Source: Nitrospira japonica
GTDB lineage: Bacteria > Nitrospirota > Nitrospiria > Nitrospirales > Nitrospiraceae
DNA: 64,000 nucleotides
Assembly (NCBI RefSeq): GCF_900169565.1
Contig: NZ_LT828648.1
Span: 1,800,876 to 1,864,875, forward strand
Direction: 5' to 3'
Both the position numbers and the translations under genes were made by a program. The notes beneath the pieces were generated by a model, which saw only the letters and a program-made list of their open reading frames with translations, was not told the origin of the DNA and ran no database searches. Shown here piece after piece: positions 22,953 to 40,467 of the stretch (positions within the stretch are counted from its first letter, which is position 1; every line of letters begins with the position of its first letter).

Positions 22953-22956
22953 CTTT

Positions 22957-24039
22957 TCAACCGTTTACACAATCCACCATCGCTCCACCTGCCGGCTGTG
23001 CTGAAATTGTGCTAATCAACCGTTGCCGGTCCAGGATCTCCACCCCATCCCGTAGACTCTCAGGGAAATGGTGGGCATACCGTTGGGTCATGCTTGGCGA
23101 CTTATGGCCAAGCAGTCGTTGGACTTTGTACAGGTCCACTCCTGCTTGGACGAGTCGCGTCGCAAAGGTATGCCGCAGATCATGAAAGTGAAGATTCTCG
23201 ATCTTGGCCGCCTTCAGCGCCGCAATAAATGCCCGTCTCAGATTGCTGCCATCGAGACACGTCTGGGCTTCACTGCCGAAGACCAAGCTTTCCCCGGTTT
23301 GGCTGGCATCGCCTCGTGTTTCATACCGCTTCGTGAGAATGTCCTGTACGGTCTGATTAATAGGAATCGTGCGCCGTTCGCCGTTCTTTGATCGAAAGAC
23401 CGTGACGGTCCGCCGCACGAAATCTACACCGTTCCAGTTTAACGCGAGAATTTCTCCCCGGCGCATGCCGGTATGAGCCGCGAAGAGGATTAGCTCTCTC
23501 AGCCATGGAAGGGCTGTCTTGAGCAGTCGCCCTTCTTCCGCCTCCGTTAACCAACGATCACGGGTGTTCTGTTCCCGTTCCATCGATACCCGACACACTG
23601 GGTTATCTCGCGTCCATTCCCACTCACGACAGGCCAAGTTGAAAGCCTTCTTGAGCACGGCCAGTTCTCGGTTGATCGTCGCCGGCATGACACCATCCAC
23701 ATAGCGTTTGTTCTTGAACGCCACGATAGTCTTCGGTGTCACATGATGGAGTTTCGGATTGCCAAAGAAGGCCTTCAAATTGTCCACCATGTTCACGTAC
23801 CGACGATAGTGCATCCGTCTACTCGCATGTTCTCGGAGGTAGCGCTCCATCAGTTGCAAGAACGTCTTGGCCTCTTCCCTCGGTTTGTCAAAATACTTTC
23901 CCTCGACAATTTCAACCTTCACCTTCCCGAGTATGGCTTCAGCAAGGCGCTTGTCTGAAGTCTCGGTCGACCGCCGAATTTGCCGTCCCTCATACGTGAA
24001 AGACATCCACCACACATTGCCACGTTTAACGAGCCCCAT
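22957..24039 (-). CDS. int: Tyrosine recombinase (site-specific integrase)
   Basis: A 360-residue phage/island-type integrase. N-terminal arm-binding part (MGLVKRGNVWWMSFTYEG), SAM-like core-binding domain around ETREHASRRMHYRRY-type sequence near 100, and catalytic domain with Arg in HTGMRRGEILALNW, Lys in the VFRSKNGERRTIPI hairpin, HxxR in HDLRHTFATRLVQAG, His in LLGHKSPSM and Tyr in TQRYAHH. All catalytic residues are present, so the enzyme may be active. The start at 24039 is chosen because AAAGGAG lies 7-8 bases upstream. It overlaps the AlpA-like gene by 14 bases and its end abuts the att copy at 22908-22952. Confidence 0.9.
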   Translation of the reverse strand: MGLVKRGNVWWMSFTYEGRQIRRSTETSDKRLAEAILGKVKVEIVEGKYFDKPREEAKTFLQLMERYLREHASRRMHYRRYVNMVDNLKAFFGNPKLHHVTPKTIVAFKNKRYVDGVMPATINRELAVLKKAFNLACREWEWTRDNPVCRVSMEREQNTRDRWLTEAEEGRLLKTALPWLRELILFAAHTGMRRGEILALNWNGVDFVRRTVTVFRSKNGERRTIPINQTVQDILTKRYETRGDASQTGESLVFGSEAQTCLDGSNLRRAFIAALKAAKIENLHFHDLRHTFATRLVQAGVDLYKVQRLLGHKSPSMTQRYAHHFPESLRDGVEILDRQRLISTISAQPAGGAMVDCVNG

Positions 24040-24337
24040 CGTCATGCTCCTTTCCCTCAGGGCTCGGTGATATGGTTTCCCCGTGGCGGGGAGTATATGC
24101 GGTGCGCTTAGCGTCGGCAATAAGGCGGTCAATGTCCGTGTCAGGGCTAGATATTCTGCATGGAGCAGACGAAAGGGGAGGGGGTTGCAGCGAAGTCAGC
24201 CAGCGGTCGATCTCTTCAGGCTCAAAGCGGATAAGGCCGTAGATCTTACGACAGGGAATTTTCCCTTGTGCAACCCAGGCGTAGAGAGTCGAGACCTTAA
24301 TGTTCAGACGAGCGGACAGGTCTTTGATCGTGAGCAT
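24026..24337 (-). CDS. AlpA/excisionase-like DNA-binding protein
   Basis: A 103-residue protein with an N-terminal MerR/AlpA-type helix-turn-helix: MLTIKDLSARLNIKVSTLYA, WVAQGKIPCRKIYGLIRFEP, EEIDRWL. The tail is Pro/Ser rich. Such proteins direct excision or activate the integrase gene. Its end overlaps the integrase start, so both are translated together. A palindrome lies over its ribosome binding site. The ATG at 24337 is taken since GAGGG precedes it. Confidence 0.8.
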   Translation of the reverse strand: MLTIKDLSARLNIKVSTLYAWVAQGKIPCRKIYGLIRFEPEEIDRWLTSLQPPPLSSAPCRISSPDTDIDRLIADAKRTAYTPRHGETISPSPEGKEHDDGAR

Positions 24338-24342
24338 GGTAT

Positions 24343-24366
24343 CCCTCACACGGTGAACCGTGAGGG
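24343..24366 (-). promoter_or_regulatory. Palindrome over the AlpA ribosome binding site
   Basis: CCCTCAC at 24343-24349 and GTGAGGG at 24360-24366 form an inverted repeat with inner ACGGT/ACCGT arms. It covers the GAGGG ribosome binding site and ends 6 bases before the AlpA-like start. It could be an operator for the protein itself or an RNA hairpin hiding the binding site. No experimental support is visible. Confidence 0.45.
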
Positions 24367-25806: not shown

Positions 25807-26321
25807 ATGGCTATCGCAAAAGAGAAGAACCCGAACATTCTTCGCAAGAATGTTTCCGGACGGGAATGGCTATCTCTCCAACTTCGTATTGATCCGTACA
25901 GTAATTGGCGTCAACTTGACCGTCTATGTCGATCAGCGTAGAAGATCTGGTCAGGGGAGTCGAAATTTAGAGAGATGGTGCACCGATCTTGTTCCATTCA
26001 AAGATAACCGAGGCGGAACCCCGGCTATCTACTTTTGAGCATGAGAGAAGTTTTTGGACGTCCTATCCCACTGGCGAGAATATCTATTCAATACCTTACA
26101 GTACGCCGCCTTATTTTAGTCATCAATACACCGGCCACCAGCAGTTCTTGGAGTTGTTGGAAGACAGCATCATAGACCGGTTTGAGCGTTTTTGTCTCCA
26201 GTTTGCCTCAGAACCAGATTGCACCAAACCGACCGCCCGTATAGGGAACTCCAAAAGCTATATACCAGGCTTAAGCATGGTATACCCAGCAAGTGAACGC
26301 GACGCTCGGAATTGTCCATAG
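25807..26321 (+). pseudogene. Probable broken gene upstream of the helical-tail protein
   Basis: A frame from ATG 25807 (MAIAKEKNPNILRKNVSG, WLSLQLRIDPYSNWRQLDRL) stops with TAG at about 25939. The reading appears to go on in another frame (VEDLVRGVEI, a second TAG, RDGAPILFHSKITEAEPRL, FERFCLQFASEPD) to 26321. Together they look like one protein of about 165 residues with a frameshift and a stop. I do not recognise it. The alternative is that both frames are chance. Confidence 0.4.
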
Positions 26322-26329
26322 GAGATATT

Positions 26330-27040
26330 GTGCAAGAAGAACTCAAACTACTCACTTCCCAAAGGAACGAAATGTTCCTCATGCTACAAGACAACAAGTT
26401 TTCTCCCTCCGAATTTGAGTGGATACGCTGGGCGTCCGTTACGGGCAACTTTAAGACTGTTCCTGCATTGCGCCATATACCCACTGGGTACTATTTTGTA
26501 GTTGATAGAGCGGAAAACAGGGATGGAGAGTACGGATTCTTTGTTCAGTATTCTCCAGGGAGAGAAACGAAGCTTGAAGGTGACGAAGCCGGAGAGTGGT
26601 CCGTTGTTACACTAAACTTCGCCAGATGGCTCAGCTACATTATGCGGGAGACTGAATTACCCGACCTATGGGAAGGTCTAGTAAAGGACACTCAACTTAT
26701 TCGGGACACTGATCAACAGTCATCCGACAATCTTCCATTTACCAACGAGGAGCTGCCGCGTGTTCGTAATGCCATCGAGGAAATTAAAAGGTACATTCAC
26801 AAAACTCACGAACTTAGCGAAGCACAATGGAAGATGATTGATGCGCGGTTTGATTATCTTGAGCAAAAAGCTGGTGAGTTTGGTCGAAAGGACTGGATGC
26901 ATATAGCTGTTAGCGTGTTGCTCAGCATTGGCGTTGACCATCTGCAAAGTTCCACTAGCACCCGAGATCTATTTCAATTTGCAAGTGAGGTTTTCAAACA
27001 GGCTCTGGGAGCAATTCTTTATTTGGCTGGTCCTCACTAA
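26330..27040 (+). CDS. Uncharacterised protein with helical C-terminal module
   Basis: About 236 residues, not recognised by name. The first half is mixed (FEWIRWASVTGNFKTVPALR, GYYFVVDRAENRDGEYGFFV). The second half is a helical module: FTNEELPRVRNAIEEIKRYI, ELSEAQWKMIDARFDYLEQK, FGRKDWMHIAVSVLLSIGVD, ending with a mildly hydrophobic tail LGAILYLAGPH. I have seen this helical tail pattern attached to many uncharacterised proteins and it may be a membrane-inserting or oligomerising end; that is inference. Start: GTG 26330 after AGGAG (short spacing) or TTG 26312. It is cargo of the integrated element. Confidence 0.6.
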   Translation: MQEELKLLTSQRNEMFLMLQDNKFSPSEFEWIRWASVTGNFKTVPALRHIPTGYYFVVDRAENRDGEYGFFVQYSPGRETKLEGDEAGEWSVVTLNFARWLSYIMRETELPDLWEGLVKDTQLIRDTDQQSSDNLPFTNEELPRVRNAIEEIKRYIHKTHELSEAQWKMIDARFDYLEQKAGEFGRKDWMHIAVSVLLSIGVDHLQSSTSTRDLFQFASEVFKQALGAILYLAGPH

Positions 27041-27322
27041 CAAGTTCACCGAGGTTCACAGATTTCATCTTTCATAACTTCGGAAACCACATAGCCCCCC
27101 CCGGCTTCCGCGTCGTCATCTCCTTGTCATTCACCCAAAACTATTTCATTTGTCCTTTTCTCACTCCTTTCAGCTCCGCTCCTAGGAAGGACGCATTGCT
27201 GGCTTAATGACAGGTAACCCCATGCCCCGCCTAAATACATGTAATATCTACATCTTCTTGAACATACCTTGCTGCACACTTTAGAATCCCACGGTCTAGA
27301 TTAATAAAGTGGAGGGACTACT

Positions 27323-28669
27323 GTGATTGAGCGAATACTAGAGTTACTAAATTCCTTAAGTGAAGACGCTCAGAATGCAATTATCAAGAAGTGCAAGGAA
27401 TTAGGCTTTGATCCCAACAAGGGAGATATCTCACTCGAAGAGTCATTCATAAATTTGAACTCAGCCCGCGCCATACTTAAAGAGTCTATCGCCCAAAGCA
27501 AATTGATCCAGCTCCCTCTTTCCGTACAGAAAAACCTACTCCCTTTGCTAGAAAATATACAAAGGCTCCAGGCAGAAATTATTAATGGCACAGATCAAGT
27601 AGTTAATCTCGTAAATGTAATTGAAGCGTTGCATTTTGCTGTATGGACGTTCGGTCTCCATAAATTGTCAGGAGAAGTTCTTGGCTTAGAAACTAAAATG
27701 AATCAGCTAAAACAACTGGAATTGGATGCGACGAAGCTGAAGGCCGAGTTGCAAGATGGGCTTCGGGTAAAAGAATCCCTTGATAAGATCCAGACGCAAG
27801 CTTCAGATCAAGCGGCATCGCTTCATCGATTACTTGGTGAGTCACATGAAACTCTTAGGAAGATAAATGACAATCTGTCTACATCATCAGAGGCAAATCA
27901 AAAAGTAGGAGCGTTGTTACAGACAATTCAACAGTCCGATGTTGCGTCCTCGCAATTCTCGGCGAATGCCAAGGCCAGCCAATCAGCAGTAGCTGCAATC
28001 GAAAACAAAATTCAAGAGTTCCTCAGTCAAATTGATACCTATCGAGACAAGCTTGTCAAAATGAGCACCGACGCGGAAAACACTGTCGCAGAACATTCAG
28101 CCGAAACGGGACGGCTCATATCGCAACTAAAAGAGCTTGAAGACCTCATTAAACTTCAGATCCAGAAGGCCACAGGGTTTTCTCTCTTCCACTCTTTCCA
28201 AACGAGAAAAGAATCGCTAGTAAAATCGAAGCAATTTTGGATTTATGCAATCGTCGGTCTTATTTGTATTTCCCTCGGTTTCACTGGATGGATAATATCG
28301 ACCGTGCCGGAAACGCTTGACACCGCGTTCTACCTTAAGCTTACGATCTCCATACCGATCATATTTCTAATAACATTTTGCACGCTGCAATACTCTCGTG
28401 AGAGAAGGCTAGAGGAGGAATACGCCTTTAAATCCAATATCTCAATCTCATTGATCCCTTACCAGGAACTAGTTGATAAACTCACCGACAAATCCAAACA
28501 AGCTGAACGTGATCGCTATGCCACTTTCATAATCGAATCGATAGGAAAGGTTTTCTCTTCTCCAACTGACAAGGTATTTGAGGATCGCAGTGCCTCTAAA
28601 TTAAGTATGAAGTCGCTCAAAGAATTCACTGATATCTTCGAGCAAATGCAGAAACTCCTGAAGCCCTAG
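27323..28669 (+). CDS. Coiled-coil protein with two membrane segments
   Basis: A 448-residue protein starting with GTG 27323 after GGAGGGA. Residues 1-110 are helical (MIERILELLNSLSEDAQNAI), 115-295 form long coiled coils (ETKMNQLKQLELDATKLKAE, LRKINDNLSTSSEANQK, ELEDLIKLQIQKATGF). Two membrane helices follow at about 304-326 (FWIYAIVGLICISLGFTGWI) and 338-358 (LTISIPIIFLITFCTLQYS), then a 90-residue cytoplasmic tail. No enzyme motif is visible. The design resembles membrane sensors or pore-forming effectors. The next gene, 68 bases on, is an Mrr-like nuclease, so they may act together. Confidence 0.65.
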   Translation: MIERILELLNSLSEDAQNAIIKKCKELGFDPNKGDISLEESFINLNSARAILKESIAQSKLIQLPLSVQKNLLPLLENIQRLQAEIINGTDQVVNLVNVIEALHFAVWTFGLHKLSGEVLGLETKMNQLKQLELDATKLKAELQDGLRVKESLDKIQTQASDQAASLHRLLGESHETLRKINDNLSTSSEANQKVGALLQTIQQSDVASSQFSANAKASQSAVAAIENKIQEFLSQIDTYRDKLVKMSTDAENTVAEHSAETGRLISQLKELEDLIKLQIQKATGFSLFHSFQTRKESLVKSKQFWIYAIVGLICISLGFTGWIISTVPETLDTAFYLKLTISIPIIFLITFCTLQYSRERRLEEEYAFKSNISISLIPYQELVDKLTDKSKQAERDRYATFIIESIGKVFSSPTDKVFEDRSASKLSMKSLKEFTDIFEQMQKLLKP

Positions 28670-28737: not shown

Positions 28738-29928
28738 ATGGCTGACAGCACGTTGAATGATACCCTTCGACATTTTGAAGCCGCAGAAGCCAATCTTGGC
28801 AAAGCAGAAAAGGTGCTTTGCGATATAGAGTCCGCCATCCCAGAGGGGATCGTGTTTGGTGTGAATCCAGAGTATGAAGCAAATTGCAGAAGTTTCAACG
28901 TGCTGCTTTCAGCATTGCCAAAAATTGACGGTTGGAAGCCCACTATTGCGATCTTGGAGTTAGATGAAATTGCACAAAATCGATTGGACGCACTGGAGTT
29001 AGGGGAGGTTTCATGTATAAACAACGTGGAGCGAGAAATTGGCGCGCCAACTCGGCAGCTCCGTGAGTATCGCTACCGTTTCAATCAGAAGCGTCGTGAA
29101 CTGATTCGAGATGCCTTGATTGAGTTAATTGATGCCATTGATGGAAATTTGAGAAAGCTAGGAAAGTTACTCGATGAAGAATCGCCTCTCAATGAGACGA
29201 TAGCGGATCCGGAATTCGAACAAATCAAGGAGAACGCTGCTCAGATTAGTGCTCTGCTAGGGAGTAGCGTGCCAATGCCTGCCAGATGGTCGGACCTGCA
29301 TCGGCACTTGCACTTTGGCATGCTTGGTGACCTTCAGGATATCATCAAGCATGACTGGCCGAGTGTAAAGGCAGGACTGAGAAAGTCACTGTATGGAGAA
29401 AGGGAGCCGGTTCCTGTCGATGTAGAGGATCTTGGTGCCCTTGTTAGCAAAAAACCTCGTGGTCGAGTCGTAACAAAACTGCTATGGATGCATCTCACAG
29501 ACGAAGACTTCGAGCGTCTTATATTTGCGCTTATTTCCTCAGAACAACAATATGAAAATCCCGAATGGCTAATGAAGACGAATGCTCCTGATAGAGGACG
29601 AGATCTTTCTGTCTATCGCGTCTATTCGGACCCACTAGCCGGGGCTGTGCGACATCGTGTCATCATCCAATGCAAGCACTGGCAATCCAAAAGCGTAGGT
29701 CCCTCTGAAATTGCTACGCTCAAAGAACAAATGAAACTGTGGGAACCCCCCAGAGTGGATGTTCATGTGATTGCGACTTCAGGCCGGTTCTCTTCCGATG
29801 CTGTCTCTATCATCGAGAGGCAGAACCGCTCTGACAGTGCTTTAAGAATTGAAATGTGGCCAGAAAGCCATTTGGAATTGTTACTTGCGAGCCGTCCAGC
29901 AATCATCGCTGAGTTTGGTCTTCGGTAG
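28738..29928 (+). CDS. Mrr-like restriction endonuclease
   Basis: A 396-residue protein. The N-terminal 200 residues are helical (LRHFEAAEANLGKAEKVLCD, LGKLLDEESPLNETI). The C-terminal 150 hold a PD-(D/E)XK nuclease of the Mrr type: LTDEDFERLIFALISSEQQY, APDRGRDLSVYRV with the metal Asp near 287, RVIIQCKHWQSKSVGPSEI with the QxK pair near 312, and DVHVIATSGRFSSDAVSIIE. Such enzymes cut modified or foreign DNA. No methyltransferase partner is near, consistent with type IV-like action or with control by the upstream membrane protein. The ATG follows CGGAGG. A 250-base stretch with an att-like repeat comes after it. Confidence 0.78.
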   Translation: MADSTLNDTLRHFEAAEANLGKAEKVLCDIESAIPEGIVFGVNPEYEANCRSFNVLLSALPKIDGWKPTIAILELDEIAQNRLDALELGEVSCINNVEREIGAPTRQLREYRYRFNQKRRELIRDALIELIDAIDGNLRKLGKLLDEESPLNETIADPEFEQIKENAAQISALLGSSVPMPARWSDLHRHLHFGMLGDLQDIIKHDWPSVKAGLRKSLYGEREPVPVDVEDLGALVSKKPRGRVVTKLLWMHLTDEDFERLIFALISSEQQYENPEWLMKTNAPDRGRDLSVYRVYSDPLAGAVRHRVIIQCKHWQSKSVGPSEIATLKEQMKLWEPPRVDVHVIATSGRFSSDAVSIIERQNRSDSALRIEMWPESHLELLLASRPAIIAEFGLR

Positions 29929-29974
29929 TAAAGCAGAGAGTGAATCTGACAGTACTGTGCTAAAGCATTCGAAT

Positions 29975-30099
29975 CCGATAAGGCATTGTCGTTTCATCGA
30001 AAAGCGGGGAAACCACTTACATCACCGAGCCTTAGCAGTTTCTATCTCCTAAATTTCGTAATCTGCAGGTCGCCCTTTCACGTCGGGTGGTCGGCTCCT
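29975..30099 (+). repeat. Element right end with degenerate att copy
   Basis: 30055-30099 matches the 45-bp tRNA-Thr att core at 36 positions, starting TTCGTAA and ending CGGCTCC. The preceding 80 bases resemble those before the exact copy at 32225 (shared words GCATTGTC, GCGGGGAAACC/ACGGGGAAACC, CATCACCGAGC, TTTAG/CTTAG). It marks the right end of an older integration; the mismatches disturb the T-stem, so it is not a tRNA. Confidence 0.7.
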
Positions 30100-30252
30100 C
30101 TTTTCAGGTATGGAGTCCGTGTTTTGACCGAACTGCGACTTCGCCTCCTAATTGGTGCTAGCTTCCAAGCTTTACGAACGCCAGAAAACTGGTGAGACTA
30201 AAACGCCCGGCTCTTACAGTCTTTCCCTTGCGTGTAATTATCTCTGCAGTAC

Positions 30253-31230
30253 TCACAGTGTGGCTCCTTCCTGCTTGAGCCTCTCCGCTATTGCTGCATG
30301 CTTGTTATGAATTGCGCATCCCAACGCAGAGTTTGAGGGATGGGCTGGTTTGGTAAACCGCTTTGCATTTACATCTGCTCCATTCTGCAAGAGAAGAACC
30401 ACAGTCTCTTCCCGGCCCTCACACGCTGCATGAATCAGTGCTGTCCCGCCAGCATTATCTTTTGCATTAACAATGGCCCCATTGGTGAGGAGAACTTGGA
30501 CAGTTTCTGTGTGACCTTCCATCGCCGCATGTATAAGTGGTGTGAACTGGAACATCCCTCTAGCGTTGACGTCAGCCCCTTTTGCGATGAGAGCATCGAC
30601 CAACTCCTTGTTCCCCTTTCCAGCAGCAACCATGAGAGGGGTTGTTTCCCCTGACCACAGACTATTAGGGTCTGCGCCTTGATCTAACAATCGCCGCGCG
30701 GTTGCTGTATGGCCATTCAGGACGGCATAGAACAATGGCGTCAAGCCTTGTCTAGTTTTCCCGTTGATAGCTCCGCCGTTCTCTAGCAGAACTTGCACAA
30801 TCTCATCATGACCTGCCCAGGCCGCGCTCATTAATGCGGAATGGCCCCAACTGTCCCTTGACTCTACATTTTCACCTTTTTCGAGCATCAACTTGACAGC
30901 CGTGAGATCGCCTTTCTCCGCGGCCACGGGAAGTGCTCCTATAAAGAACTGTTCATACACGGTAAGCGGTAGCAAAACGGTATCAGCGGCAAAGCTAAGT
31001 GGAATATCTAACGGCAGCGGTATGTTCGAAGTGGTTTTTGAGCGGTATTCATATCTAATCCAGTGAATATCAGCGGCCACGCCTCCGTATATTCTTGTCC
31101 TCGGATATACAAGGTCCCCTTCCTGCGATCCACGATCCTGATAAGGGTCAACATTTCTACTGACAATAGTCCCACATCCACCTTGAAGGAGAGTAAGGAC
31201 CAGTATGAATAGCGGCGAGAATCTTCCCAT
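30253..31230 (-). CDS. YceK-like lipoprotein fused to ankyrin repeats
   Basis: 325 residues. The start at 31230 gives a lipoprotein signal, MGRFSPLFILVLTLLQGGC, with Cys at residue 19. Residues 20-95 match YceK/DUF1375-type lipoproteins: GTIVSRN, RTRIYGGVAADIHWI, LPLDIPLSFAADTVLLPLT. About seven ankyrin repeats follow to the end (WGHSALMSAAWAGHDEIVQV, LTPLFYAVLNGHTATARRLL, GGTALIHAACEGREETVVLL). The protein is thus anchored in the envelope with an ankyrin array in the periplasm or at the surface. YceK domains are normally stand-alone proteins of about 75 residues, so the fusion is unusual. The frame is open to 31305, but the longer N-terminus would bury the signal. Confidence 0.75.
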   Translation of the reverse strand: MGRFSPLFILVLTLLQGGCGTIVSRNVDPYQDRGSQEGDLVYPRTRIYGGVAADIHWIRYEYRSKTTSNIPLPLDIPLSFAADTVLLPLTVYEQFFIGALPVAAEKGDLTAVKLMLEKGENVESRDSWGHSALMSAAWAGHDEIVQVLLENGGAINGKTRQGLTPLFYAVLNGHTATARRLLDQGADPNSLWSGETTPLMVAAGKGNKELVDALIAKGADVNARGMFQFTPLIHAAMEGHTETVQVLLTNGAIVNAKDNAGGTALIHAACEGREETVVLLLQNGADVNAKRFTKPAHPSNSALGCAIHNKHAAIAERLKQEGATL

Positions 31231-31447
31231 GCCGGGTGCTCTTGTAGACGCTTTCCCAAGGTAAGGCAATCCGACGTACTGTCCATGCTTACTCATCGGG
31301 TGCATATTATGTTAGCAGGTATTTGTTGCGCGACAAGCGCAGCAGGCGTATGTCCCAAGCGGTCCTCATCAGGCCCAAACTGACCTAAACTGCCCAATTC
31401 CTTTCTCTTCTCATTCGATCTCCCTAACCCCTTTTCCTGGACCATGC

Positions 31448-31639
31448 GTGATTTTATCAGTGGTCGTCACAAATCTAGGCAAAATCTCCCACACCTGGCT
31501 TGTGCAAAGTTCTTCTCATCCGATTTTGGATCAAGTCGTTGTAGATGTTGTGCAAAGCATCGCACCGATCTCGTTCAAGCACCACTCCAACACGCCTACG
31601 AAAACTATCTATGTTCCGATGACTTTCAAAATGAGGTAA
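31448..31639 (+). pseudogene. TonB C-terminal domain remnant
   Basis: 64 codons from GTG 31448 read as the end of a TonB-type energy transducer: ILSVVVTNLGKISHTWLVQS, SSHPILDQVVVDVVQSIAP, TKTIYVPMTFKM and a stop. The order (strand, SSGxPxLDxA, VPxxF) is that of TonB C-terminal domains. The membrane anchor and Pro-rich spacer are absent, so the gene is dead or only a domain fragment. Confidence 0.6.
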
Positions 31640-31714
31640 GCTTTGTCTTGGAGAGTTCTGAAGTAGCCTGCCGGGGAGCCCACACTTCTGACTTTCGGCA
31701 AAAGGAGGTGTTCA

Positions 31715-32011
31715 ATGGATCGCCATCCCCAGGACTTTCTTAATCCCCTTACCTCAGCACAAGCGCATGCAGAACTCTTCAGGGAACACCATCCCGAATA
31801 TGCTGATGCAATGCTGAAATTTCTCCTGGAGCTGGCACGGATCACCAATGACTTGAAGAATGCTCTAGGGTATAAGAAATTTTGTGCAGTGTGTCGCATC
31901 CCTATGGAGTCAAAACTGGACATGAATGGTAAGCGTCAGGGAAACCTTTTATGGCTGGAAGGTTGGTCATGTCCAACGTGTGGAGGCGAACAGGTAAGCT
32001 GCCAAAAGTGA
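31715..32011 (+). CDS. Small zinc-ribbon protein
   Basis: 98 residues, start fixed by AAAAGGAGGTG ahead of ATG 31715. The N-terminal half is helical (LTSAQAHAELFREHHPEYAD, LLELARITNDLKNALG) and the C-terminal half has two CxxC pairs, FCAVCRIPM and SCPTCGGEQ, which should bind one zinc. There is no signal peptide. The family is unknown to me; a nucleic-acid or protein-binding role is possible. Confidence 0.65.
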   Translation: MDRHPQDFLNPLTSAQAHAELFREHHPEYADAMLKFLLELARITNDLKNALGYKKFCAVCRIPMESKLDMNGKRQGNLLWLEGWSCPTCGGEQVSCQK

Positions 32012-32144
32012 ATAGGGCACTTGGGCGCCGTCCCATGCTGATTACAGATGGTGCGCGGCAGGAACAGGAGTTGGCTGTGCTAAATTTGTGCTAGAACTCT
32101 TCGATCTAGATCTTAACCCCCACAATCAGTAGAAGTAGTCGAAT

Positions 32145-32269
32145 CCGTTAACGCATTGTCTATTCACAGAAAAACGGGGAAACCTCTTTCATCACCGAGC
32201 TTTAGCGATTTCTTTCTTCCTAATTTCGTAAACCGCAGGTCGCCCGTTCAATCCGGGTCGCCGGCTCCA
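32145..32269 (+). repeat. Attachment site, distal end (exact copy of tRNA-Thr 3' half)
   Basis: 32225-32269 is identical over 45 bases to the integrase-side copy at 22908-22952. The 80 bases before it are similar to those before 30055. Together the two exact copies bound a 9.3-kb segment with integrase, AlpA-like and Rep genes, the pattern expected for an integrated element. Confidence 0.85.
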
Positions 32270-32325
32270 GTCTTTTCAAACACTTCAACTCCTGCGGATC
32301 CCCGCCAAGGTTGTGCCTGATAGCT

Positions 32326-33339
32326 CTACTGTTTCCTTACTTCATGCATTATCCGCCGAATGGATGCTGAATGTGGCGCTTTCGCTAAAGCAGCTCTCAA
32401 ATCCGGTAAGATCCCTTTGCCCATGAGTCCCAGCGCATAGACGGCACCCTCACGCAAATCCTTATTGGGGCCCTGGAGGTAGTACAAGAGAATCGGTACG
32501 CCTCGCTTATCCCCTGCTATACGGTGGAGCGCATAGGCCGCGTAGATCTGGATGGACGGCTCATCGTTCTCCAACCGTTCACGAAGTACCGGTGCGGCAT
32601 TCGTGCTCATCATGCGCGCAAGATCGAGAATGGCTTCCAATCGTTCCTGGCGATCGCCTTCTCGTAATCGAAGTATCAGCAGTTCTTGGCGGAGCACCAG
32701 TTCTTGGTCGGTCGACATCGTACTCAGTGTACCAATGATGCGTTCAAGCTTGTAGTTCTTCCAGAGTGAACTGGTGTGGAGGTCAAAATGACTTCCCCCC
32801 ACTTTGAGATTGTCCGACGCTTCAGGAAGAATCTGCCCTTTGGTCTTACCTTCACCCCGTGGGTAGGGCTCTGCGCCTGCAGTCTGCCACCCATCATCCG
32901 GCGAATACACATTGTAGATGTATCGTATGTTCTTCATGCTCGGCGAGTAGTCGGTACGGATGGGCGTGCCCAGGAGAATCAGCGTGTGGATCTTTAATCC
33001 GTCATGGCTCGCCAAGAATGCCACGTTTCCTCCGTGGCTGTGGGCTACAATACGGAGCTTTTCGGTAGGGTGTGCCACAACCCATCGTTGCAGCGCCTTT
33101 CCTCCTTCAGTCCGATCTTTATGACTCACGCCGCCGCTCCAACTAAAGAAGTCCGCTCCTTTGTAGACATCGTTGGTGTGCTGATCGAGATAAGCAGGAA
33201 ACTCAGCACCCCATCGCCACCAGTCTTCATCGTTCGCCCAGGTTCCATGGACAATGATGGTCGACGTGGGATCGACTTGTGTCAACCTAGTATGGAAAGT
33301 TCTCTTACGCTTCCTCTTTGCTTTCACAATGCTGCGCAT
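32326..33339 (-). CDS. Alpha/beta hydrolase with C-terminal HEAT-like repeats
   Basis: About 337 residues. The N-terminal 220 form an alpha/beta hydrolase: STIIVHGTWANDEDWWRWG (oxyanion HG), nucleophile Ser in RIVAHSHGGNVAFLAS, ILLGTPIRTDY, and a likely catalytic His in KVGGSHFDLH. The last 110 residues are HEAT-like helical repeats (RLEAILDLARMMSTNAAPVL, IQIYAAYALHRIAG, LREGAVYALGLMGKGILPDL). The very basic start (KAKRKRKRTFHTRL) is not a signal peptide, so it acts in the cytoplasm. The substrate is unknown; esterase or lipase. ATG 33339 is preferred over GTG 33366. It lies 57 bases right of the distal att copy. Confidence 0.75.
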   Translation of the reverse strand: MRSIVKAKRKRKRTFHTRLTQVDPTSTIIVHGTWANDEDWWRWGAEFPAYLDQHTNDVYKGADFFSWSGGVSHKDRTEGGKALQRWVVAHPTEKLRIVAHSHGGNVAFLASHDGLKIHTLILLGTPIRTDYSPSMKNIRYIYNVYSPDDGWQTAGAEPYPRGEGKTKGQILPEASDNLKVGGSHFDLHTSSLWKNYKLERIIGTLSTMSTDQELVLRQELLILRLREGDRQERLEAILDLARMMSTNAAPVLRERLENDEPSIQIYAAYALHRIAGDKRGVPILLYYLQGPNKDLREGAVYALGLMGKGILPDLRAALAKAPHSASIRRIMHEVRKQ

Positions 33340-33547
33340 CTTTTTCTCTCGCGATAATCGTGTCACCCTTCTTCACACCGTTCTGTTTGAAAGCGCCAGC
33401 TATCGCGCCTTACCAGTTGTTGAACCGCACGTCTGATCTCTGCAATCGCGCACAAATCCTCAAGTCGCAGTCCGTCAGGCCAAACTGGAGAGGATAGGGG
33501 GTTCAATCTGCGAGACCCCATCCTCAGCAGTTGTCTATATTTGCCCG

Positions 33548-36304
33548 TTACGGCACAAACGTCCCAACTAGGGCTGCCGGCCGACTGGTTGAGTCAAAAT
33601 AGACACGCAAACCCGTCGCATTGTTGTGACTTCCACCGGGGCCTGAACACTTAGTGGAGTCAGCATTGGTCCCAATGCGGGTACTGATCTTTAGACTTAG
33701 CACATCACTCGTCCCATTAAAGCTTCCACCTAGAAGAGTGGTGATGGCTACAGCGACTTGTTTCGCGAGATTGTCATTGCGGGTCACTCCCGTGACGCAA
33801 CGAGTCTCCCCAGCCGCCACCAGGCTGCTGTTCTTGTACACTTCTGCCTGCACATCAAATTGCGTCCCCTGATCGTCGCTGTTCTTTAGCCCCACCCAAA
33901 TATTGAGGTTGCTGGGTGCCGTAAGTGTTCCACTTGATAGAGAGGGAGAGGCCGTCCATGTGCCAATCTCTTTCCAAGGGTTTCCCTTATTGAAGTTGAT
34001 CCCGACCGAGTCCCTGTATTTCGGGGTTGTCGCACTGGGATTGGCGCCATTTAGGAACAGGGCAATAGGGTTATTGTTCCCGCCACTACCATGGAGATAG
34101 AAATTAGATGTCGGGGAATTGGCATCACTTATCTTGGCAATAAACCCATCCACATTTCCCGCGAAGGTCGGCTGAACAACACCCGGTGTGGTGGGAAAGT
34201 TCGACGAGGCGTAACCTGTCACATAGGCGTTCCCCGAACTGTCTACCGTAATGCCTTGTCCTCCCGAAGAGCTGCTCCCACCCAGAAAGGTTGAATAGAC
34301 TACGGTGGTCCCAGTTGGATCGACCTTGGTGACGTATGCATTGGATCCCCCTGAGGTCTCTTGAATCGCTCCAGGAGTTGTGGGGAAATTACTTGAGGAA
34401 GTCTCTCCCGTTACATATGCATTACTTGATCCATCGACAGCAATTCCATAACCCAGGTCGAAAGAGTTGCCTCCGAGATAAGTGGCATAAATTAGCGACA
34501 TCCCGGTCACATCAATCGCAGCGACAAATGCATCAGCGAGCCCGCCACCGTAGCTTGTTTGATACGCCCCAGCCGTGACAGGGAAGTTGCCTCCTGAACT
34601 TGTCTGACCGATCACATACGCATTGTTGGATCCGTCCAAGGCAATCTTGTACCCAAGATCATTCCCACTCCCGCCCAGAAAGGTTGAATAGATGAGAGAC
34701 GATCCGGTTGGATCAACTTTCGCGATAAAGGCATCCCCTCCTGCAAATGTTCCACCAGGACCACCAAAGGTAGTCTGGACTGCACCTAGCGTCGTAGGGA
34801 AATTGCTCGAGGCGGTATTCCCTGTCACATAGGCATTCCCAGGAGTGTCTAACGCAATCCCCCTCGCGAAGTCGTAGCTATTCCCGCCAAGATAGGTGGA
34901 ATACAAAAGGGAGGTTCCCGTCGCGTTTAACGCTGTGACAAATCCGTCATTCGTGCCACCCCACGTGGTTTGAAGGGCTCCAAGAGTGGTAGGAAAATTG
35001 CCTGAGCCTGTCGTGCCGGCCACATATGCATTGCCCGCCTCGTCAACAGCGATCCCGAGGCCCGCTTCTAAATCATTTCCTCCGAGATACGTTGAATAAA
35101 TCAATGTCGTGCCTGAGGAACCAAGCTTCGCGACAAACGCATCAGGGCCTCCGCCTGAGCTTGCCTGAAACACGCCAGGGGTAATGGGGAAATTAGCGGA
35201 ACTGGTCACACCGGTCACATAGATGTTTCCCGCTACATCGACGGCAAGGCTGTTACCGACATCGTCTGAAGTGCCGCCGAGGAATGTGGAGAACACCCGG
35301 GCCGTGGCTGTTGAATTGAGCTTAACTACAAAGGCATCTGTAGTAGCTCCGCCGTAAGCAGGCTGGACAACACCGGCGGTGGTTGGAAAGTTTGTCGATT
35401 GTACTTCGCCCGTTATATAAGCATTACCTGACACGTCGATGGCTATGCTGTAGCCATAATCGGCATTGCTTCCGCCGATGTAGGTCGCGTAGACGAGTGT
35501 GGGGTCGATAATTAGTGGTCGACTTCTATCATACGCGCCCACCTCAAAGCTTACTTCCTGGTTGTCGGTGAGAATGTAGTGGGCGGAGATTTCCTCTCTT
35601 GCTCCATTCTTATCTTGAAAGGCTCGTGGGCGCTGCAGTTGCAGTGCCTTGCCCGCATGCAATCGCAAATCCCCATGGACGCCAATCTTCAACCGGTCGC
35701 TTCCGCCTACGACAAGTTTGATTGCACGAGGGTCTGCACCAGGCGCCACGACGAAGTCAAATTCGAGTTGTTGCTGGTTACCGTAATAGACGATGTCGAT
35801 GCCTGGATATACTTGCGGCTGCACCACTTTCTCGTACATGCGAATACTAGTTCGCCACATTTCCGGGTTATTGCCGAGCAGATAGTTGACCTGACCAGTC
35901 AATTCGTCTGCACCGTTGAATGGAGTGGGAGCATTTCGTCCAGCCAACGTTAGCCTTAGAACAGTGCTTTCATCAAGTCGTGCAGTTTCCAAACCAGTCG
36001 CATTACGGTGATGCGAGAAACTAGGAGAGGAAGGTCGAAGTGTTAGCACGGTCTCATCGGGAGTCAAGAACACCGTGTATCCCGGACCGCGGGCTAAATA
36101 TTTCACCTGTGAGTCAGTCTGCCCCTGGTTCGCTTCAAAGTTCAGAGGAAGCCGTCCGTAAGCGGATTTCACCTCTACCATTGAGGATGCTGGTCCGTCT
36201 GTAATCTTTGGAGCTGCCGCAATTTCATTCGACAACGTGAAACTCAGAGCAATAGCTAAAAGAATTCCCCTCAGGATTGCAGCCCCGCGACGGTTCCTCT
36301 GCAT
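33548..36304 (-). CDS. Secreted SBBP-repeat beta-propeller protein
   Basis: 918 residues, start at 36304 after AAGGAGGTCGAG. Signal peptide GILLAIALSFTLSNEIAAA. Residues 50-270 match the N-terminal domain usually found before SBBP repeats (LPLNFEANQGQTDSQVKYLA, GPGYTVFLTPDETVLTL). About seven SBBP repeats follow, each with T(Y/F)xGG and xGNAY(V/I)TG (LIYSTYLGGNDLEAGLGIAV, SNAYVTGETSSSNFPTT). The last 170 residues form a beta-rich domain (WTASPSLSSGTLTAPSN, SLVAAGETRCVTGVTRN). SBBP proteins are exported and probably fold as propellers; the function is unknown, perhaps adhesion. Confidence 0.85.
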   Translation of the reverse strand: MQRNRRGAAILRGILLAIALSFTLSNEIAAAPKITDGPASSMVEVKSAYGRLPLNFEANQGQTDSQVKYLARGPGYTVFLTPDETVLTLRPSSPSFSHHRNATGLETARLDESTVLRLTLAGRNAPTPFNGADELTGQVNYLLGNNPEMWRTSIRMYEKVVQPQVYPGIDIVYYGNQQQLEFDFVVAPGADPRAIKLVVGGSDRLKIGVHGDLRLHAGKALQLQRPRAFQDKNGAREEISAHYILTDNQEVSFEVGAYDRSRPLIIDPTLVYATYIGGSNADYGYSIAIDVSGNAYITGEVQSTNFPTTAGVVQPAYGGATTDAFVVKLNSTATARVFSTFLGGTSDDVGNSLAVDVAGNIYVTGVTSSANFPITPGVFQASSGGGPDAFVAKLGSSGTTLIYSTYLGGNDLEAGLGIAVDEAGNAYVAGTTGSGNFPTTLGALQTTWGGTNDGFVTALNATGTSLLYSTYLGGNSYDFARGIALDTPGNAYVTGNTASSNFPTTLGAVQTTFGGPGGTFAGGDAFIAKVDPTGSSLIYSTFLGGSGNDLGYKIALDGSNNAYVIGQTSSGGNFPVTAGAYQTSYGGGLADAFVAAIDVTGMSLIYATYLGGNSFDLGYGIAVDGSSNAYVTGETSSSNFPTTPGAIQETSGGSNAYVTKVDPTGTTVVYSTFLGGSSSSGGQGITVDSSGNAYVTGYASSNFPTTPGVVQPTFAGNVDGFIAKISDANSPTSNFYLHGSGGNNNPIALFLNGANPSATTPKYRDSVGINFNKGNPWKEIGTWTASPSLSSGTLTAPSNLNIWVGLKNSDDQGTQFDVQAEVYKNSSLVAAGETRCVTGVTRNDNLAKQVAVAITTLLGGSFNGTSDVLSLKISTRIGTNADSTKCSGPGGSHNNATGLRVYFDSTSRPAALVGTFVP

Positions 36305-36946
36305 AGCTCGACCTCCTTGTTGTGAATGCATCCCACTGCGCCACTACCCAACTAGCGTGAGAGTTGCGTTGTTATTCAAAAACGACTGTCGTCGAACTGG
36401 ATAAGCTCTAGAGAAGTAGACATGACGTGGGGGAACTTGTCTCGTCGACGAGGAGCAGACCATCATAGCGGAGGCTCTCTTGGAACCAGCTACTGTTGTC
36501 TGTATGTAGGCGCCGCCTTATGACATGCGTTCCTTGATGCGGTCAAGAGATTTCTGAGGCGTACGGTGAAGTTACTTTTTACAGAGAGCGACGAAGTGAA
36601 ACTGGATCTTAGCAAGACGAGTCGAGATCTGTTTTGGGCAAGGGATAGCTCCATTTGATTCAATAAGTTGCCTATTGCATGTATTTTTGAGCACCGACAC
36701 TCGACAGAAAGATTCGAGAACGCGAGGGCTGATAATACATGCTATTTTCTTCGTCGCGTCTTAATCACCGCCCAATCGTTCATCTCTTCGATCGGCTCCA
36801 CTTTTCTAAACTACACGTATTATTTCTTCGAATTCTTCGAGCTTGTGGCCTCAATACTGCTTGACAATCTGACGCATCAACCGTAATGGATCGCGTCATC
36901 TGCTCTCGGTTCGTCCATTCACTCCCCCCTGTCAAAAGGAGGCATC
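36305..36946. other. Intergenic region with a weak att-like trace
   Basis: About 640 bases without a gene. At 36784-36812 the words CGTTCATCT and CGATCGGCTCCACTTTTC resemble the end of the tRNA-Thr att core and the bases that follow it beside the integrase (CGGCTCCACTTTTC). This may be a third, badly eroded insertion end. AAAGGAGGCATC before 36947 is the binding site of the next gene. Confidence 0.4.
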
Positions 36947-37465
36947 ATGCTAAAGCGCTTTCTCGGATCCATGGGAATCATTTTGGCTTGTACCATGCCC
37001 AGTTTCGCGGTCCCACTGGAAAGTTGGGACGACAAGATTCCGAACGGGAGTCAAAGGTTCAAAGTTTTATCAGAGTTCAATGACGAAGCGGTCTTGGACA
37101 AGGAAACTCAGCTGGTTTGGGAACGGGCTCCGTACTCACTTTCCTTTATCTGGAAAGATGCGAGAGGGTCTTGTCCATTCAAGATCATCGGTGGTCGACG
37201 AGGCTGGAGACTTCCGTCGTTTGTTGAGCTCATGAGTTTGGTCGACCCTACCGCCAATGCCAGCCCTCTCCTGCCACCTGGCCACCCATTCTCGAACATT
37301 CACGCGGTGCCAGGTGACTTCTATTGGTCAGCCACCACATCGGCTGATGTAACAACCGACGCATGGGAAGTCTTCTTCGGCCAAGGGACCACAGGCCCCG
37401 GTGACAAGATGCAGATGCATTTTGTTTGGTGTGTCCGTGGCCCCATGAATGCAGATCAGTACTAA
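36947..37465 (+). CDS. Secreted DUF1566 (Lcl C-terminal) domain protein
   Basis: 172 residues with a signal peptide (MLKRFLGSMGIILACTMPSFA) and a DUF1566/Lcl C-terminal domain: EAVLDKETQLVWERAP, GGRRGWRLPSFVELMSLVDP, FYWSATTSADVTTDAWEVFF and MHFVWCVRG. The Cys at SCPF and the Cys of VWCVRG could form a disulfide. The family is C-type-lectin-like and exported; its ligand is unknown. AAAAGGAGG precedes the ATG. Confidence 0.8.
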   Translation: MLKRFLGSMGIILACTMPSFAVPLESWDDKIPNGSQRFKVLSEFNDEAVLDKETQLVWERAPYSLSFIWKDARGSCPFKIIGGRRGWRLPSFVELMSLVDPTANASPLLPPGHPFSNIHAVPGDFYWSATTSADVTTDAWEVFFGQGTTGPGDKMQMHFVWCVRGPMNADQY

Positions 37466-37652
37466 GTTAAAGATAGCCAGCGGGAGGAACTCAACCAGCA
37501 TCCATGACTCGAAGCACTTCACACACATCGAATGGAGTGAAGATTAAAAAGCGTACGTCCCTGTTTAGAGTCTTGGCGAGCGGTCCGGGGGCTCGCAACA
37601 AGATTGAGTCCGACATGATTTCATTCCCGCTTATCTCATAGGTTGTTGGCAG

Positions 37653-38097
37653 GTGGAGGGCCTTCGAGTGAAGACCTCCGATACGGGTGGCTATTTTGCC
37701 ATCATTGGTCCACACAATTGGAGCGTATCAGCAGATGGGCAACAGTTGACATGGAATGGCTATGCACTGACTCGTGTCTCCGGTTCCGGGGTGACATATG
37801 TCGGCGTATGGAGTGGGACGGATGGAGACCCAATGGAGATTGCATTTGGTGATGATGGCACGTATCAATGGCGGTGGGTAAACGAGAATGAGAGCGTATA
37901 CGGACACTACGTGGTATCTGGCAATATATTGACCGCGTATGAAAAGCGCGGAGACATGACGGCCACTGGGAACCGTCTCACCATGGACACCGTCTGGGGG
38001 CGATCATCTGGAAGGCAGCTATTCCCTCAATGCCGATCATTGGCATATTGACTGGGATAGCGGAGATAGAACGGATCTCTATAAGATCGGGTGTTGA
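37653..38097 (+). pseudogene. Gene with frameshift in a G-run
   Basis: From GTG 37653 a frame gives YFAIIGPHNWSVSADGQQLT, a repeat-like beta protein with GDDGTYQWRWVNENESVYGH. After TMDTVWG it leaves the natural reading at a run of five G (37994-38000 region). One base fewer gives GDHLEGSYSLNADHWHIDWD and ends LYKIGC with TGA at 38095-38097, which continues the same Trp/Asp-rich pattern. So either the gene is frameshifted or the run is a sequencing error. The N-terminus may also be missing, since no binding site or leader is seen. Family unknown. Confidence 0.5.
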
Positions 38098-38305
38098 TTC
38101 ATCGCGTTAGTCAAACATCGACAATTTGGCATTAGACAACTCGTCCGGCAGCGCCTCCTCATGTCCTTCACGATTCGTCCCTTCCGTCGCAATTGTGCGC
38201 TGGGTGCGAGGCGAGAAGTATTGAGTGGAGACACTGGTCATGGATGAAGAATCGCGGGTAGCTCTCGACCGCTACGTGGATGGATCGACGGAGGTGATAT
38301 AGACC

Positions 38306-38905
38306 ATGAATCTCTCTCGGGCATCCAATCTGGGCACACTAAGTCTTGCCCTTATTTTGCTAGTGTCAATCGCACGGGCCCCCGTTGCCGCATCCGGTGC
38401 TGAGGAGATGGTCCCACTCCAGCAAGAGGAAGGGAGTTGTCCTGACCTCACAGGGCTCTATGAATATCAGGGCAAAGCCGCGGACGGATTCCCGACGTAC
38501 TATCGGGCACTAAAAACGCCGCTAACCTTGGACAGGCTGCTAGGCACATTCGCATTTGGAAACAAGTATCCTGAACTCATCGGGGGTCAACTGAGTGGCA
38601 TCGGGCGTGGCTTGGAACTCACGATTCTCGGAACCAATGCCTTCACCTATCTCGATTCCGTCGTACGTCCTGAGGATCGAGTCGTGTGTGAAGCTGAGAT
38701 GCTTCGATTAGAACAGCATCGCGAGGTAGGGGGCGATGGGGCCTATAATAAGTTGCACATTATCCGGACGGCCTCGATTGAGAAAGGAGGCGCCCTTCAG
38801 GTGAACGTCACGATACGAGGGAGCGGCCGGTTTCTTTTCTTCTTTTGGTATGAACTGCCCTCCGAGGAGTATCAAGCTGTTTTCTTGCGAAAGGCTGAGA
38901 GCTAG
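38306..38905 (+). CDS. Secreted protein of unknown function
   Basis: 199 residues with a signal peptide (LSLALILLVSIARAPVAASG) and GGAGGTG before ATG 38306. The mature part begins GSCPDLTGLYEYQGKAADG, which recalls small lipocalin-like or copper-resistance-like barrels, and has charged beta strands (GRGLELTILGTNAFTYL, KLHIIRTASIEKGGALQV, FLFFFWYELPSEEYQAVFL). Two Cys could form a disulfide. I do not recognise a family. Confidence 0.65.
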   Translation: MNLSRASNLGTLSLALILLVSIARAPVAASGAEEMVPLQQEEGSCPDLTGLYEYQGKAADGFPTYYRALKTPLTLDRLLGTFAFGNKYPELIGGQLSGIGRGLELTILGTNAFTYLDSVVRPEDRVVCEAEMLRLEQHREVGGDGAYNKLHIIRTASIEKGGALQVNVTIRGSGRFLFFFWYELPSEEYQAVFLRKAES

Positions 38906-39004
38906 GTTAGCTCAATACTGAATGCATTTCAGGGGAATTGGCGAGAGGACGCCGGACGACGGAGCACACACCCGCTACGTCGGCACAACAGTGAAAGACT
39001 CACA

Positions 39005-39655
39005 GTGAGCGGTCTGCTTAGGCTTCTCCTCTCGATTGCACTGCTCTTCACTCCTTCCGTTGCGTGGGCGGACACCGGCAAGGTTATCGCTGTCCTCGAC
39101 GGCGACATCATTGAGGTCATACACGGCCACCAAGTCGAACGGATCCGGCTCAACGGGATTGATAGGCCAGAGAAGGGACAGGACTACGGCCAGCGGGCGA
39201 AGCGGTTTACTCAAGAGCTCGTTGAACAGAAGGAAGTGAGGGTCGAAACCCGTGGCCTCGACAAGTACGGCCGCACGATCGGCGATGTCTTCTTGATGGA
39301 TGGCACCCATGTGAACAGGGAACTTGTAAACGCCGGGCTTGCGTGGCGGTTCTGCCGGCATTCATCGGACAATCAGCTGAAGCAGCTTGAAGAGGAGTCG
39401 CGAGAGGCTAAACGCGGTCTGTGGGTGGATCCAGTCCCCATTCCACCGTGGGTCTATCGCAAGCTTCAGCGCAAACAAGTTCCCGATGTGGCGGACTTCG
39501 ACTGCTCAGGGCTTCCGGTTCCAACAGCTCTGTGGAACAATTGCTGCCAGCCCAGGCGTAGAATTCTGGACGGCGGCTTCAGTATAAACAGCTGTTCCAT
39601 TGAAAATCGGGGAAACCTCTTTTCACCGCGCCTGCTTGCCCCTCCTCGATCATAA
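39005..39655 (+). CDS. Secreted SNase-family thermonuclease with odd C-terminus
   Basis: 216 codons from GTG 39005. Signal peptide LLRLLLSIALLFTPSVAWA, then an SNase (OB-fold) domain: KVIAVLDGDIIEVIHGHQ, ERIRLNGIDRPEKGQDYGQ, VRVETRGLDKYGRTIGDVF, NRELVNAGLAWRF and EEESREAKRGLWVDPVPIPP. Active-site Arg and Asp/Glu positions are kept. After VADFDCSG the tail (LPVPTALWNNCCQPRRRI..) becomes non-SNase, and its codons at 39595-39628 overlap a sequence like the right ends of the integrated element. The 3' end may have been exchanged by an insertion. A second SNase is at 62986-63477. Confidence 0.78.
   Translation: MSGLLRLLLSIALLFTPSVAWADTGKVIAVLDGDIIEVIHGHQVERIRLNGIDRPEKGQDYGQRAKRFTQELVEQKEVRVETRGLDKYGRTIGDVFLMDGTHVNRELVNAGLAWRFCRHSSDNQLKQLEEESREAKRGLWVDPVPIPPWVYRKLQRKQVPDVADFDCSGLPVPTALWNNCCQPRRRILDGGFSINSCSIENRGNLFSPRLLAPPRS
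39595..39628 (+). repeat. Possible fourth trace of element right end
   Basis: The words GAAAATCGGGGAAACCTCTT and TTCACCG resemble AGAAAAACGGGGAAACCTCT and CATCACCG before the att copy at 32225. The similarity ends before any att core, so this is only a fragment and may be chance. Confidence 0.35.
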
Positions 39656-39939
39656 TCCATTCTTGGTTACAAAACCTCGTGTGATTGATATCATGGCTCG
39701 GTAGTGACCGTCACGTAGCGGATTCACAAATGAGCCCCAGAACGAGACTCTAATCGCCATGCCGGATCAAAGACTTCATCGGTATATCTGTAGTCCTTCC
39801 CAATCCGATCCTCCCGTCTGCACGTCATTCAACTCAATCTGACTTGGTTCTCGGTTTCAATGGCTTTGGTTACGGGTGACACCGTGGCAGTGCATTGAGA
39901 GATGGAACCATCGATCGCCCTTACGGCTAGGAGGACATC

Positions 39940-40467
39940 ATGGGATTTCTGACGCAAATGCAGTTTTCGTGGAACAAAGTAACTAAACTGCAAAAGCTGG
40001 AAAAAGCTATTGCTCCACCGCATGAGCCGGTTTCACGAATTGTCGCCGACCTCATGGGCGCGAATGAACGGGATGGATCGACCGAAAAGAAACGTGCACT
40101 GGAGGAGTTCTTGGATCTATGCGACTCGAATAGAGGAGTGCGCAGTGTCATGGAGCACGAACATCTATCGCGAGTCGATCTGAGAGGGATTGCCGTCTAC
40201 TTGATGGCCCGTGGGCTGGGCCAGTGGGTGAAGGGCCATTGCGTGGCGTTGTCGACTATCTCCCACGTTGAACCGCTCCATTACTTTGTTCTGGCGGAGA
40301 GACATGGCGTTGATCGACAGCACATACTCGCCCATCTCCTGCAATATTGGGAGGGAAAGATCTCCTCGAGTGAGTTACAGGAGCATCTGCCGGTCACGTC
40401 CTCGCCTGATGCGACGGCTTCAGAGCCTCCCCATGCTGTACTCCATGTGTGCGAAGAGGTTGCGTGA
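39940..40467 (+). CDS. Uncharacterised cytoplasmic protein
   Basis: 175 residues after an excellent AGGAGGACATC binding site. It begins MGFLTQMQFSWNKVTKLQK and is largely helical (SRIVADLMGANERDG, RALEEFLDLCDSNRGVRSV, GIAVYLMARGLGQWVKGHC, GVDRQHILAHLLQYWEG). No known motif or membrane segment is seen; family unknown. It is close to another well-started small gene on the same strand. Confidence 0.6.
   Translation: MGFLTQMQFSWNKVTKLQKLEKAIAPPHEPVSRIVADLMGANERDGSTEKKRALEEFLDLCDSNRGVRSVMEHEHLSRVDLRGIAVYLMARGLGQWVKGHCVALSTISHVEPLHYFVLAERHGVDRQHILAHLLQYWEGKISSSELQEHLPVTSSPDATASEPPHAVLHVCEEVA

What the first reader, a model, noticed from the sequence alone, without database searches (positions are those of the whole stretch)
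29975..39628. Series of decaying element ends suggests repeated insertion into one tRNA
Besides the two exact att copies, 29975-30099 carries a degenerate core (36 of 45) with a similar 80-bp approach, and weaker traces occur at about 36784-36812 and 39595-39628. This points to at least two, perhaps four, landings with accretion of cargo such as the YceK-ankyrin gene between 30099 and 32225.
Basis: partly seen in the sequence, partly recalled or inferred. Interest (0 to 1): 0.5.

Follow-up and report, generated by a model that had tools for sequence, protein, structure and literature searches.

The report
Stacked mobile elements behind one tRNA
Behind a single threonine tRNA gene this Nitrospira-family bacterium carries a stack of related mobile elements, some reduced to their end sequences plus a few passenger genes; such stacks are known from other bacteria, and this is a clear, partly fossilised example.

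Summary
Confirmed, with corrections. The target is an intact tRNA-Thr(CGT) gene 20.2 kb left of the window; no tRNA lies inside it. Behind it stand a 43-kb island with its own integrase (phage-like head: integrase, Zot, Rep_trans) and then a stack of one further element family. In Nitrospira-family relatives that family reads: tRNA, left-end motif, integrase, small ORF, Rep_trans, cargo, right-end motif (AAAACGGGGAAACC...CACCGAGC, 53-54 nt before the displaced tRNA copy). The traces are ends of this family: right ends at 30.0, 32.2 and 39.6 kb, left ends at 22.95 and 32.27 kb, a probable one at 36.79 kb, a decayed one at 30.1 kb. The 39.6-kb trace beats 1000 of 1000 shuffles and lies about 10 nt before DNA shared with a sister species. 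So at least three landings, probably four, plus the phage-like island. "Decaying series" is only half right: the 30.05-kb core is decayed while the one beyond it at 32.22 kb is exact. Best reading: 22.95-32.27 kb arrived recently as a composite holding an older fossil end. This is tandem (IME/CIME-type) accretion, a known process.

The parts
22907..22952 (+). Core A: displaced 3' part of tRNA-Thr(CGT); right end of the 43-kb island 1 (left of it) joined to element 2 (right of it)
   Evidence: 44/45 to tRNA core
22953..22970 (+). Left end of element 2 (CTTTTCAACCGTTTACAC)
   Evidence: Left-end PWM from relatives only: 36.5, shuffled max 20.2
22957..24132 (-). Tyrosine recombinase (integrase) of element 2
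   Evidence: PF00589 1.2e-38, phrog_1; up to 76-77% identity in relatives at the same tRNA
24026..24349 (-). Small ORF between int and rep, conserved in relatives' elements; excisionase is a guess from position
   Evidence: 24029-24337 matched at 54-61% identity in 10 of 11 relatives' elements, the eleventh (G002) at 32% over 47 residues
24385..25542 (-). Rep_trans rolling-circle replication initiator of element 2
   Evidence: PF02486 2.2e-34; solved relative 4cij_A, 8.6e-14
26312..28669 (+). Cargo of element 2: 242-aa ORF without match and 448-aa ORF with a sub-threshold LMBR1 match
28738..29928 (+). Cargo of element 2: Mrr-type restriction endonuclease domain protein; no homologue at 1e-15 in the other 174 genomes of the family searched
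   Evidence: PF04471 2e-9; PADLOC PDC-M58A 2.2e-9
29963..30053 (+). Right end D (GAAAAGCGGGGAAACCACTTACATCACCGAGC)
   Evidence: Right-end PWM from relatives only: 33.3, shuffled max 22.1
30054..30106 (+). Decayed core D (37/45) with a very weak left-end remnant (CTTTTCA) of unit 3
   Evidence: left-end score reached by 3.2% of random positions
30253..31305 (-). Cargo of unit 3: ankyrin-repeat protein with DUF1375 domain; no int or rep remains in the unit
   Evidence: PF12796 5.8e-53, PF07119 4.2e-4; no int/rep hit between 30.1 and 39.6 kb
32133..32223 (+). Right end E (GAAAAACGGGGAAACCTCTTTCATCACCGAGC)
   Evidence: PWM 31.5
32224..32270 (+). Exact core E (47 nt shared with the tRNA gene and its next base)
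   Evidence: alignment E-T
32271..32290 (+). Left end of unit 4 (TCTTTTCAAACACTTCAACT) directly after core E
   Evidence: Left-end PWM 33.2, shuffled max 20.2
36793..36817 (+). Trace F: end of core plus left end of unit 5 (CGGCTCCACTTTTCTAAACTACAC); probable
   Evidence: 0 of 300 shuffles, maximum over 15 relatives' left ends
39594..39633 (+). Trace G: truncated right end, core lost; overlaps the 3' end of the SNase-domain ORF 39005-39655
39644..40464 (+). Start of sequence shared with sister species G005: right border of the stack
   Evidence: 82.8% over 717 bp at 39757-40464; local alignment starts at about 39644

Best explanation
The region is a tandem accretion array at one tRNA-Thr(CGT) gene. 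Elements with a tyrosine integrase recombine with the 3' part of the tRNA (crossover probably in the anticodon loop, TTCGTAA), restore the gene with their own copy and push the previous copy and everything behind it away. Four units of one integrase / Rep_trans family stand behind a 43-kb island with another integrase: element 2 (22953-30053, integrase and rep intact), unit 3 (30099-32223, ends plus an ankyrin gene), unit 4 (from 32271, left end kept, right end lost) and unit 5 (36800-39633, both ends probable, core lost). Units 3-5 have lost integrase and rep and are CIME-like cargo. The span 22953-32270, flanked by two exact cores, probably arrived as one composite with the decayed end D already inside; island 1 came last. 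Shown: ends, order, intact tRNA, module genes, relatives. Inferred: order of arrival, composite transfer (about 0.55 on its own), crossover point, present mobility.
For: Intact tRNA-Thr(CGT) directly beside island 1's integrase gene. In close relatives (integrase 64-77% identical): tRNA, left end, int, rep, cargo, right end, displaced core; 9 of 9 right junctions read there carry the right-end motif 53-54 nt before the core. In 80 genome-contig loci of the integrase, 23 showed a direct repeat of 18 nt or more, and 18 of these 23 have GGGGAAACC 48-54 nt before the copy; across the loci called, integrases lie beside tRNA-Thr, Arg, Val, Lys, Gly and Ala genes. Relatives-only PWMs find right ends D and E and left ends A and E far above shuffles. 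Traces F and G. Stacks elsewhere: G002 (tRNA, core 45/46, fossil 30/46), G025 (displaced cores 38/46 and 34/46 to the window's core, two right ends), G027 (tRNA, 62 kb, core, 5.9-kb element, core). Composite: with equal age and rate, all 8 changes falling in D and none in E has probability 0.003.
Against: No core at G and no integrase or rep remains between 30.1 and 39.6 kb, so units 3-5 rest on end motifs only. The left end at D is very weak. F depends on gapped alignment, mainly to the G007 left end; the ungapped PWM misses it. G with relatives' ends only is at the 5% level (15 of 300). Displaced cores in G002, G003 and G005 (other or diverged integrases) lack the right-end motif (strict pattern). 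Two relatives (G048, G040) have right ends without a core after them, so ends can be separated from cores by other events. The composite step rests on 8 substitutions and could be mimicked by conversion of E from the tRNA.
Confidence: 0.8

Rival explanations
1. Strictly serial landings (unit 4, then 3, then element 2, then island 1), with core E exact by chance or by conversion from the intact tRNA; no composite ever moved.
For: Serial landing with decay growing with distance is what G002 and G025 show; conversion is not excluded.
Against: E must then be displaced earlier than D yet has 0 changes against 8 in 45 (probability 0.003 even at equal age); the left end behind E is also far better kept than the one behind D (15.1 against 1.4).
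Confidence: 0.3
2. D is a local duplication of element 2's right end (or of E's), not the trace of a separate landing.
For: D and E ends are 81% identical over 136 nt and neighbouring; unit 3 has no integrase or rep.
Against: Similarity stops about 90 nt before the core, much as between distinct elements of relatives; a left-end-like CTTTTCA follows core D; G carries the same end 7.4 kb further.
Confidence: 0.2
3. Traces F and G are chance matches and the array ends at E.
For: F fails with some queries and with an ungapped PWM; G has no core; the relatives-only test of G is marginal (15 of 300).
Against: G: 0 of 1000 shuffles, the motif is otherwise absent from the genome at 2 or fewer mismatches, and it lies at the border of shared DNA. 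F: 0 of 300 with a maximum over 15 queries.
Confidence: 0.06

Closest known systems
Tandem accretion of IMEs/ICEs with CIMEs (reviewed in PMC5704250; passages seen; Pavlovic et al. 2004 known only from reference lists)
   Same: Site-specific arrays at a gene 3' end; decayed units that keep att-type ends but lost integrase and transfer genes; the review says transfer of whole composites cannot be excluded.
   Different: Here a Nitrospira-family lineage, no conjugation helper identified, and transfer not shown.
Dehalococcoides ssrA genomic islands (PMC3146451; passages seen)
   Same: Multiple tandem islands behind one RNA gene, marked by direct repeats with a conserved motif just upstream of each repeat; some units without integration genes, discussed as cis-mobilizable.
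   Different: Serine recombinase, tmRNA target, 6-gene module, 15-bp motif directly beside the repeat; here tyrosine integrase, tRNA-Thr, int-ORF-Rep_trans module, motif 53-54 nt from the core.
Rep_Trans/MobT IMEs (PMC5704250, passages)
   Same: Tyrosine integrase plus Rep_trans-family protein, gene 3'-end target, cargo.
   Different: Relaxase activity, oriT and helper not tested here; those in the passages seen are from streptococci and other Firmicutes.
Inoviruses (PMC6813254; passages seen)
   Same: Island 1 begins with integrase, HTH, RadC, Zot and Rep_trans; prophages with att in tRNA are described.
   Different: Element 2 shows no Zot hit in the scans made; island 1 carries 43 kb, most of the scanned genes not phage-like.

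Membership tests
Tandem accretion array (IME/CIME type) | Several att copies of one target in direct orientation behind the intact gene | tested here: met
Tandem accretion array (IME/CIME type) | Units bounded by element ends | tested here: met
   Right ends D, E, G; left ends A, E, probable F
CIME (units 3-5) | No integrase or transfer genes but both att-type ends kept | tested here: inconclusive
   No int/rep remains; unit 3 has a decayed left core and exact right core; units 4 and 5 lack one end or core
IME (element 2) | Own integrase and relaxase, excision, transfer by a helper | tested here: inconclusive
   Integrase and Rep_trans present; relaxase activity, oriT, excision and helper not testable here
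Inovirus (element 2) | Zot/pI-like ATPase and coat genes | tested here: not met
   No Zot hit among the element 2 proteins scanned; small ORFs not scanned
Inovirus (head of island 1) | Zot/pI-like ATPase with Rep and integrase | tested here: met
   PF05707 5.9e-30 and phrog_197 3.3e-47, PF02486, PF00589; coat protein not sought

The most novel reading that the evidence does not exclude
The int-ORF-Rep_trans elements are satellites of filamentous-phage-like elements such as the head of island 1: same tRNA, related Rep (44% identical), no Zot found; a co-resident phage would replicate or export them, and integrase-less units flanked by the same ends would ride along as composites.
Probability: 0.12. 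Interest if true: 0.6.

Novelty: new member of a known kind. Interest (0 to 1): 0.35.

Why it matters
It shows that faint repeats read by eye were real element ends, gives both end signatures of a widespread Nitrospira-family element, and offers a site where order of arrival and composite mobility of stacked elements can be tested. The general process is already known.

Tried and rejected
A core at 39.6 kb was sought and not found (1519 of 2000 shuffles reach the observed score). Integrase or rep remains in 30.1-39.6 kb were sought with element proteins of 11 relatives and not found. The idea that the DNA right of core E is the native tRNA flank (from G004 and G006 matches) was dropped, because the same motif opens elements beside the integrase in relatives while the flank after the right end in G026, G033 and G032 is different. 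Further right ends in island 1 or in 40-63 kb: none above shuffles; one minus-strand site at window coordinate 73936 (right of the window) scores 16.9, at the level of G (17.1) and inside the shuffled range. Homologues of the Mrr-type cargo in 174 other genomes: none at 1e-15. Paper searches: tandem accretion; tycheposon; Nitrospira with integrase/island/Rep terms; Nitrospira/inovirus terms; cis-mobilizable; no listed title dealt with Nitrospira tRNA islands and one search returned 0 papers; this does not show absence from print.

In the tRNA scan, 46 of the 80 loci were submitted. The PWMs used 5 of 9 right ends and 9 of 15 left ends, near-identical ones left out. An alignment used the G007 left end, chosen after seeing that it was closest; one search corrects for that.

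Full report
What is there. The window is C1:1800876-1864875 of a 4.08-Mb single-contig genome. It holds no tRNA gene. The 45-nt repeat is the 3' part of tRNA-Thr(CGT), whose intact gene lies at C1:1780604-1780679, 20.2 kb left of the window. Copies behind it, all in direct orientation: A at 22907 (44/45), D at 30054 (37/45), E at 32224 (45/45); the next best match in 120 kb is 27/45.

Island 1. Between tRNA and A lie 43 kb headed by an integrase gene that overlaps the tRNA 3' end, an HTH protein, RadC, a Zot-domain protein and Rep_trans, followed by varied cargo such as TonB receptors, a Fur-family regulator and ankyrin/STAND proteins.

Element family. The integrase at 22957-24132 has relatives in 133 of 175 family genomes, the own one included, at 1e-20. 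Several of the closest sit beside tRNA-Thr(CGT). Reading those loci shows one anatomy: tRNA, left-end motif (TTTATCAAGCACTTACA or CTTTTCAAACACTTACA), integrase, a small conserved ORF, Rep_trans, cargo of varying length, right-end motif, displaced core. In these close relatives (integrase 64-77% identical) 9 of 9 right junctions with a core copy carry the right-end motif, 53-54 nt before the core. Displaced cores in G002, G003 and G005, with other or diverged integrases, do not (strict pattern). Two more right ends (G048, G040) are followed by only a few core bases and then other DNA, which fits a crossover in TTCGTAA or later rearrangement. In 80 further loci, 23 gave a direct repeat of 18 nt or more, and 18 of 23 have GGGGAAACC 48-54 nt before the copy.

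The traces. With profiles made from relatives only, D (33.3) and E (31.5) are right ends (shuffled maximum 22.1 in 120 kb), A (36.5) and E (33.2) left ends (shuffled maximum 20.2). Thus E is a junction of two elements. G at 39594-39633 matches the D and E right ends beyond all of 1000 shuffles; its 20-nt motif is found in the genome only at D, E, G and one 3-mismatch site; against relatives' ends alone it is marginal (15 of 300), with 8 of 9 queries landing on it. Homology with sister species G005 starts at about 39644, so G stands at the border of the array; no core remains there. F at 36793-36817 is a core end plus left end, 0 of 300 shuffles over 15 queries, but not seen by an ungapped profile and weak with the window's own cores. 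The left end at D is scarcely recognisable (3.2% of random positions score as well).

Number of landings. Three right ends of this family mean at least three landings; with left ends at E and F belonging to different units, probably four; island 1 adds another.

Order. If every landing occurred at the tRNA, cores farther from it should be older and more decayed. G002 and G025 behave so. Here D is decayed and E, beyond it, exact. Given equal age and rate, all 8 changes in D and none in E has probability 0.003, and E should be older. The simplest account is that 22953-32270 moved as one composite, flanked by the exact cores A and E, with D already a fossil inside. Conversion of E from the tRNA remains possible. 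The review PMC5704250 (passages) describes both routes: landing beside a CIME, and transfer of a whole composite.

Comparison. The nearest published case seen is the Dehalococcoides ssrA islands (PMC3146451, passages): tandem units behind one RNA gene, a motif upstream of each repeat, and integrase-less units. The process here is therefore known; host lineage, element family and end motifs are what is added. A search for Nitrospira with genome, integrase and 'replication initiation factor' returned no paper, which says little about print as a whole.

Noticed in passing
G003:C21:214385-214653 (L016, L021) and G005:C2 about 628558-628820 (L017, L022): In two sister species the tRNA-Thr(CGT) T-arm is GCTGG/CCAGT while a fossil copy about 185 nt behind keeps the GCCCG/CGGGT-type arm of the other genus members: the tRNA 3' half appears to have been swapped by an element that is now almost gone. 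In G003 a GGCTCCAGGTTGC...GCAACCTGGAGCC palindrome follows the tRNA.
   Followed up: partly
window 39757-63067: Host synteny with G003 resumes only near 63.07 kb (1.5 kb behind its tRNA), so about 23 kb right of the stack are also variable in the genus; no element ends were found there.
   Followed up: partly
window 14153-19324: 1723-aa protein with nSTAND1 NTPase and many ankyrin repeats in island 1, a candidate defence protein.
   Followed up: no
window 4029-11324: Island 1 also holds a short ORF like the start of an OLD/GajA-type ATPase (4029-4442), a Vsr-like nuclease (4786-5202) and a 978-aa protein matching NACHT and DrmC models (8388-11324).
   Followed up: no
L155, L177, L178: Relatives of the element 2 integrase (50-53% identical) occur on contigs named Kuenenia, Brocadia and Planctomycetota: either transfer between nitrogen-cycle bacteria or mis-binned contigs.
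   Followed up: no
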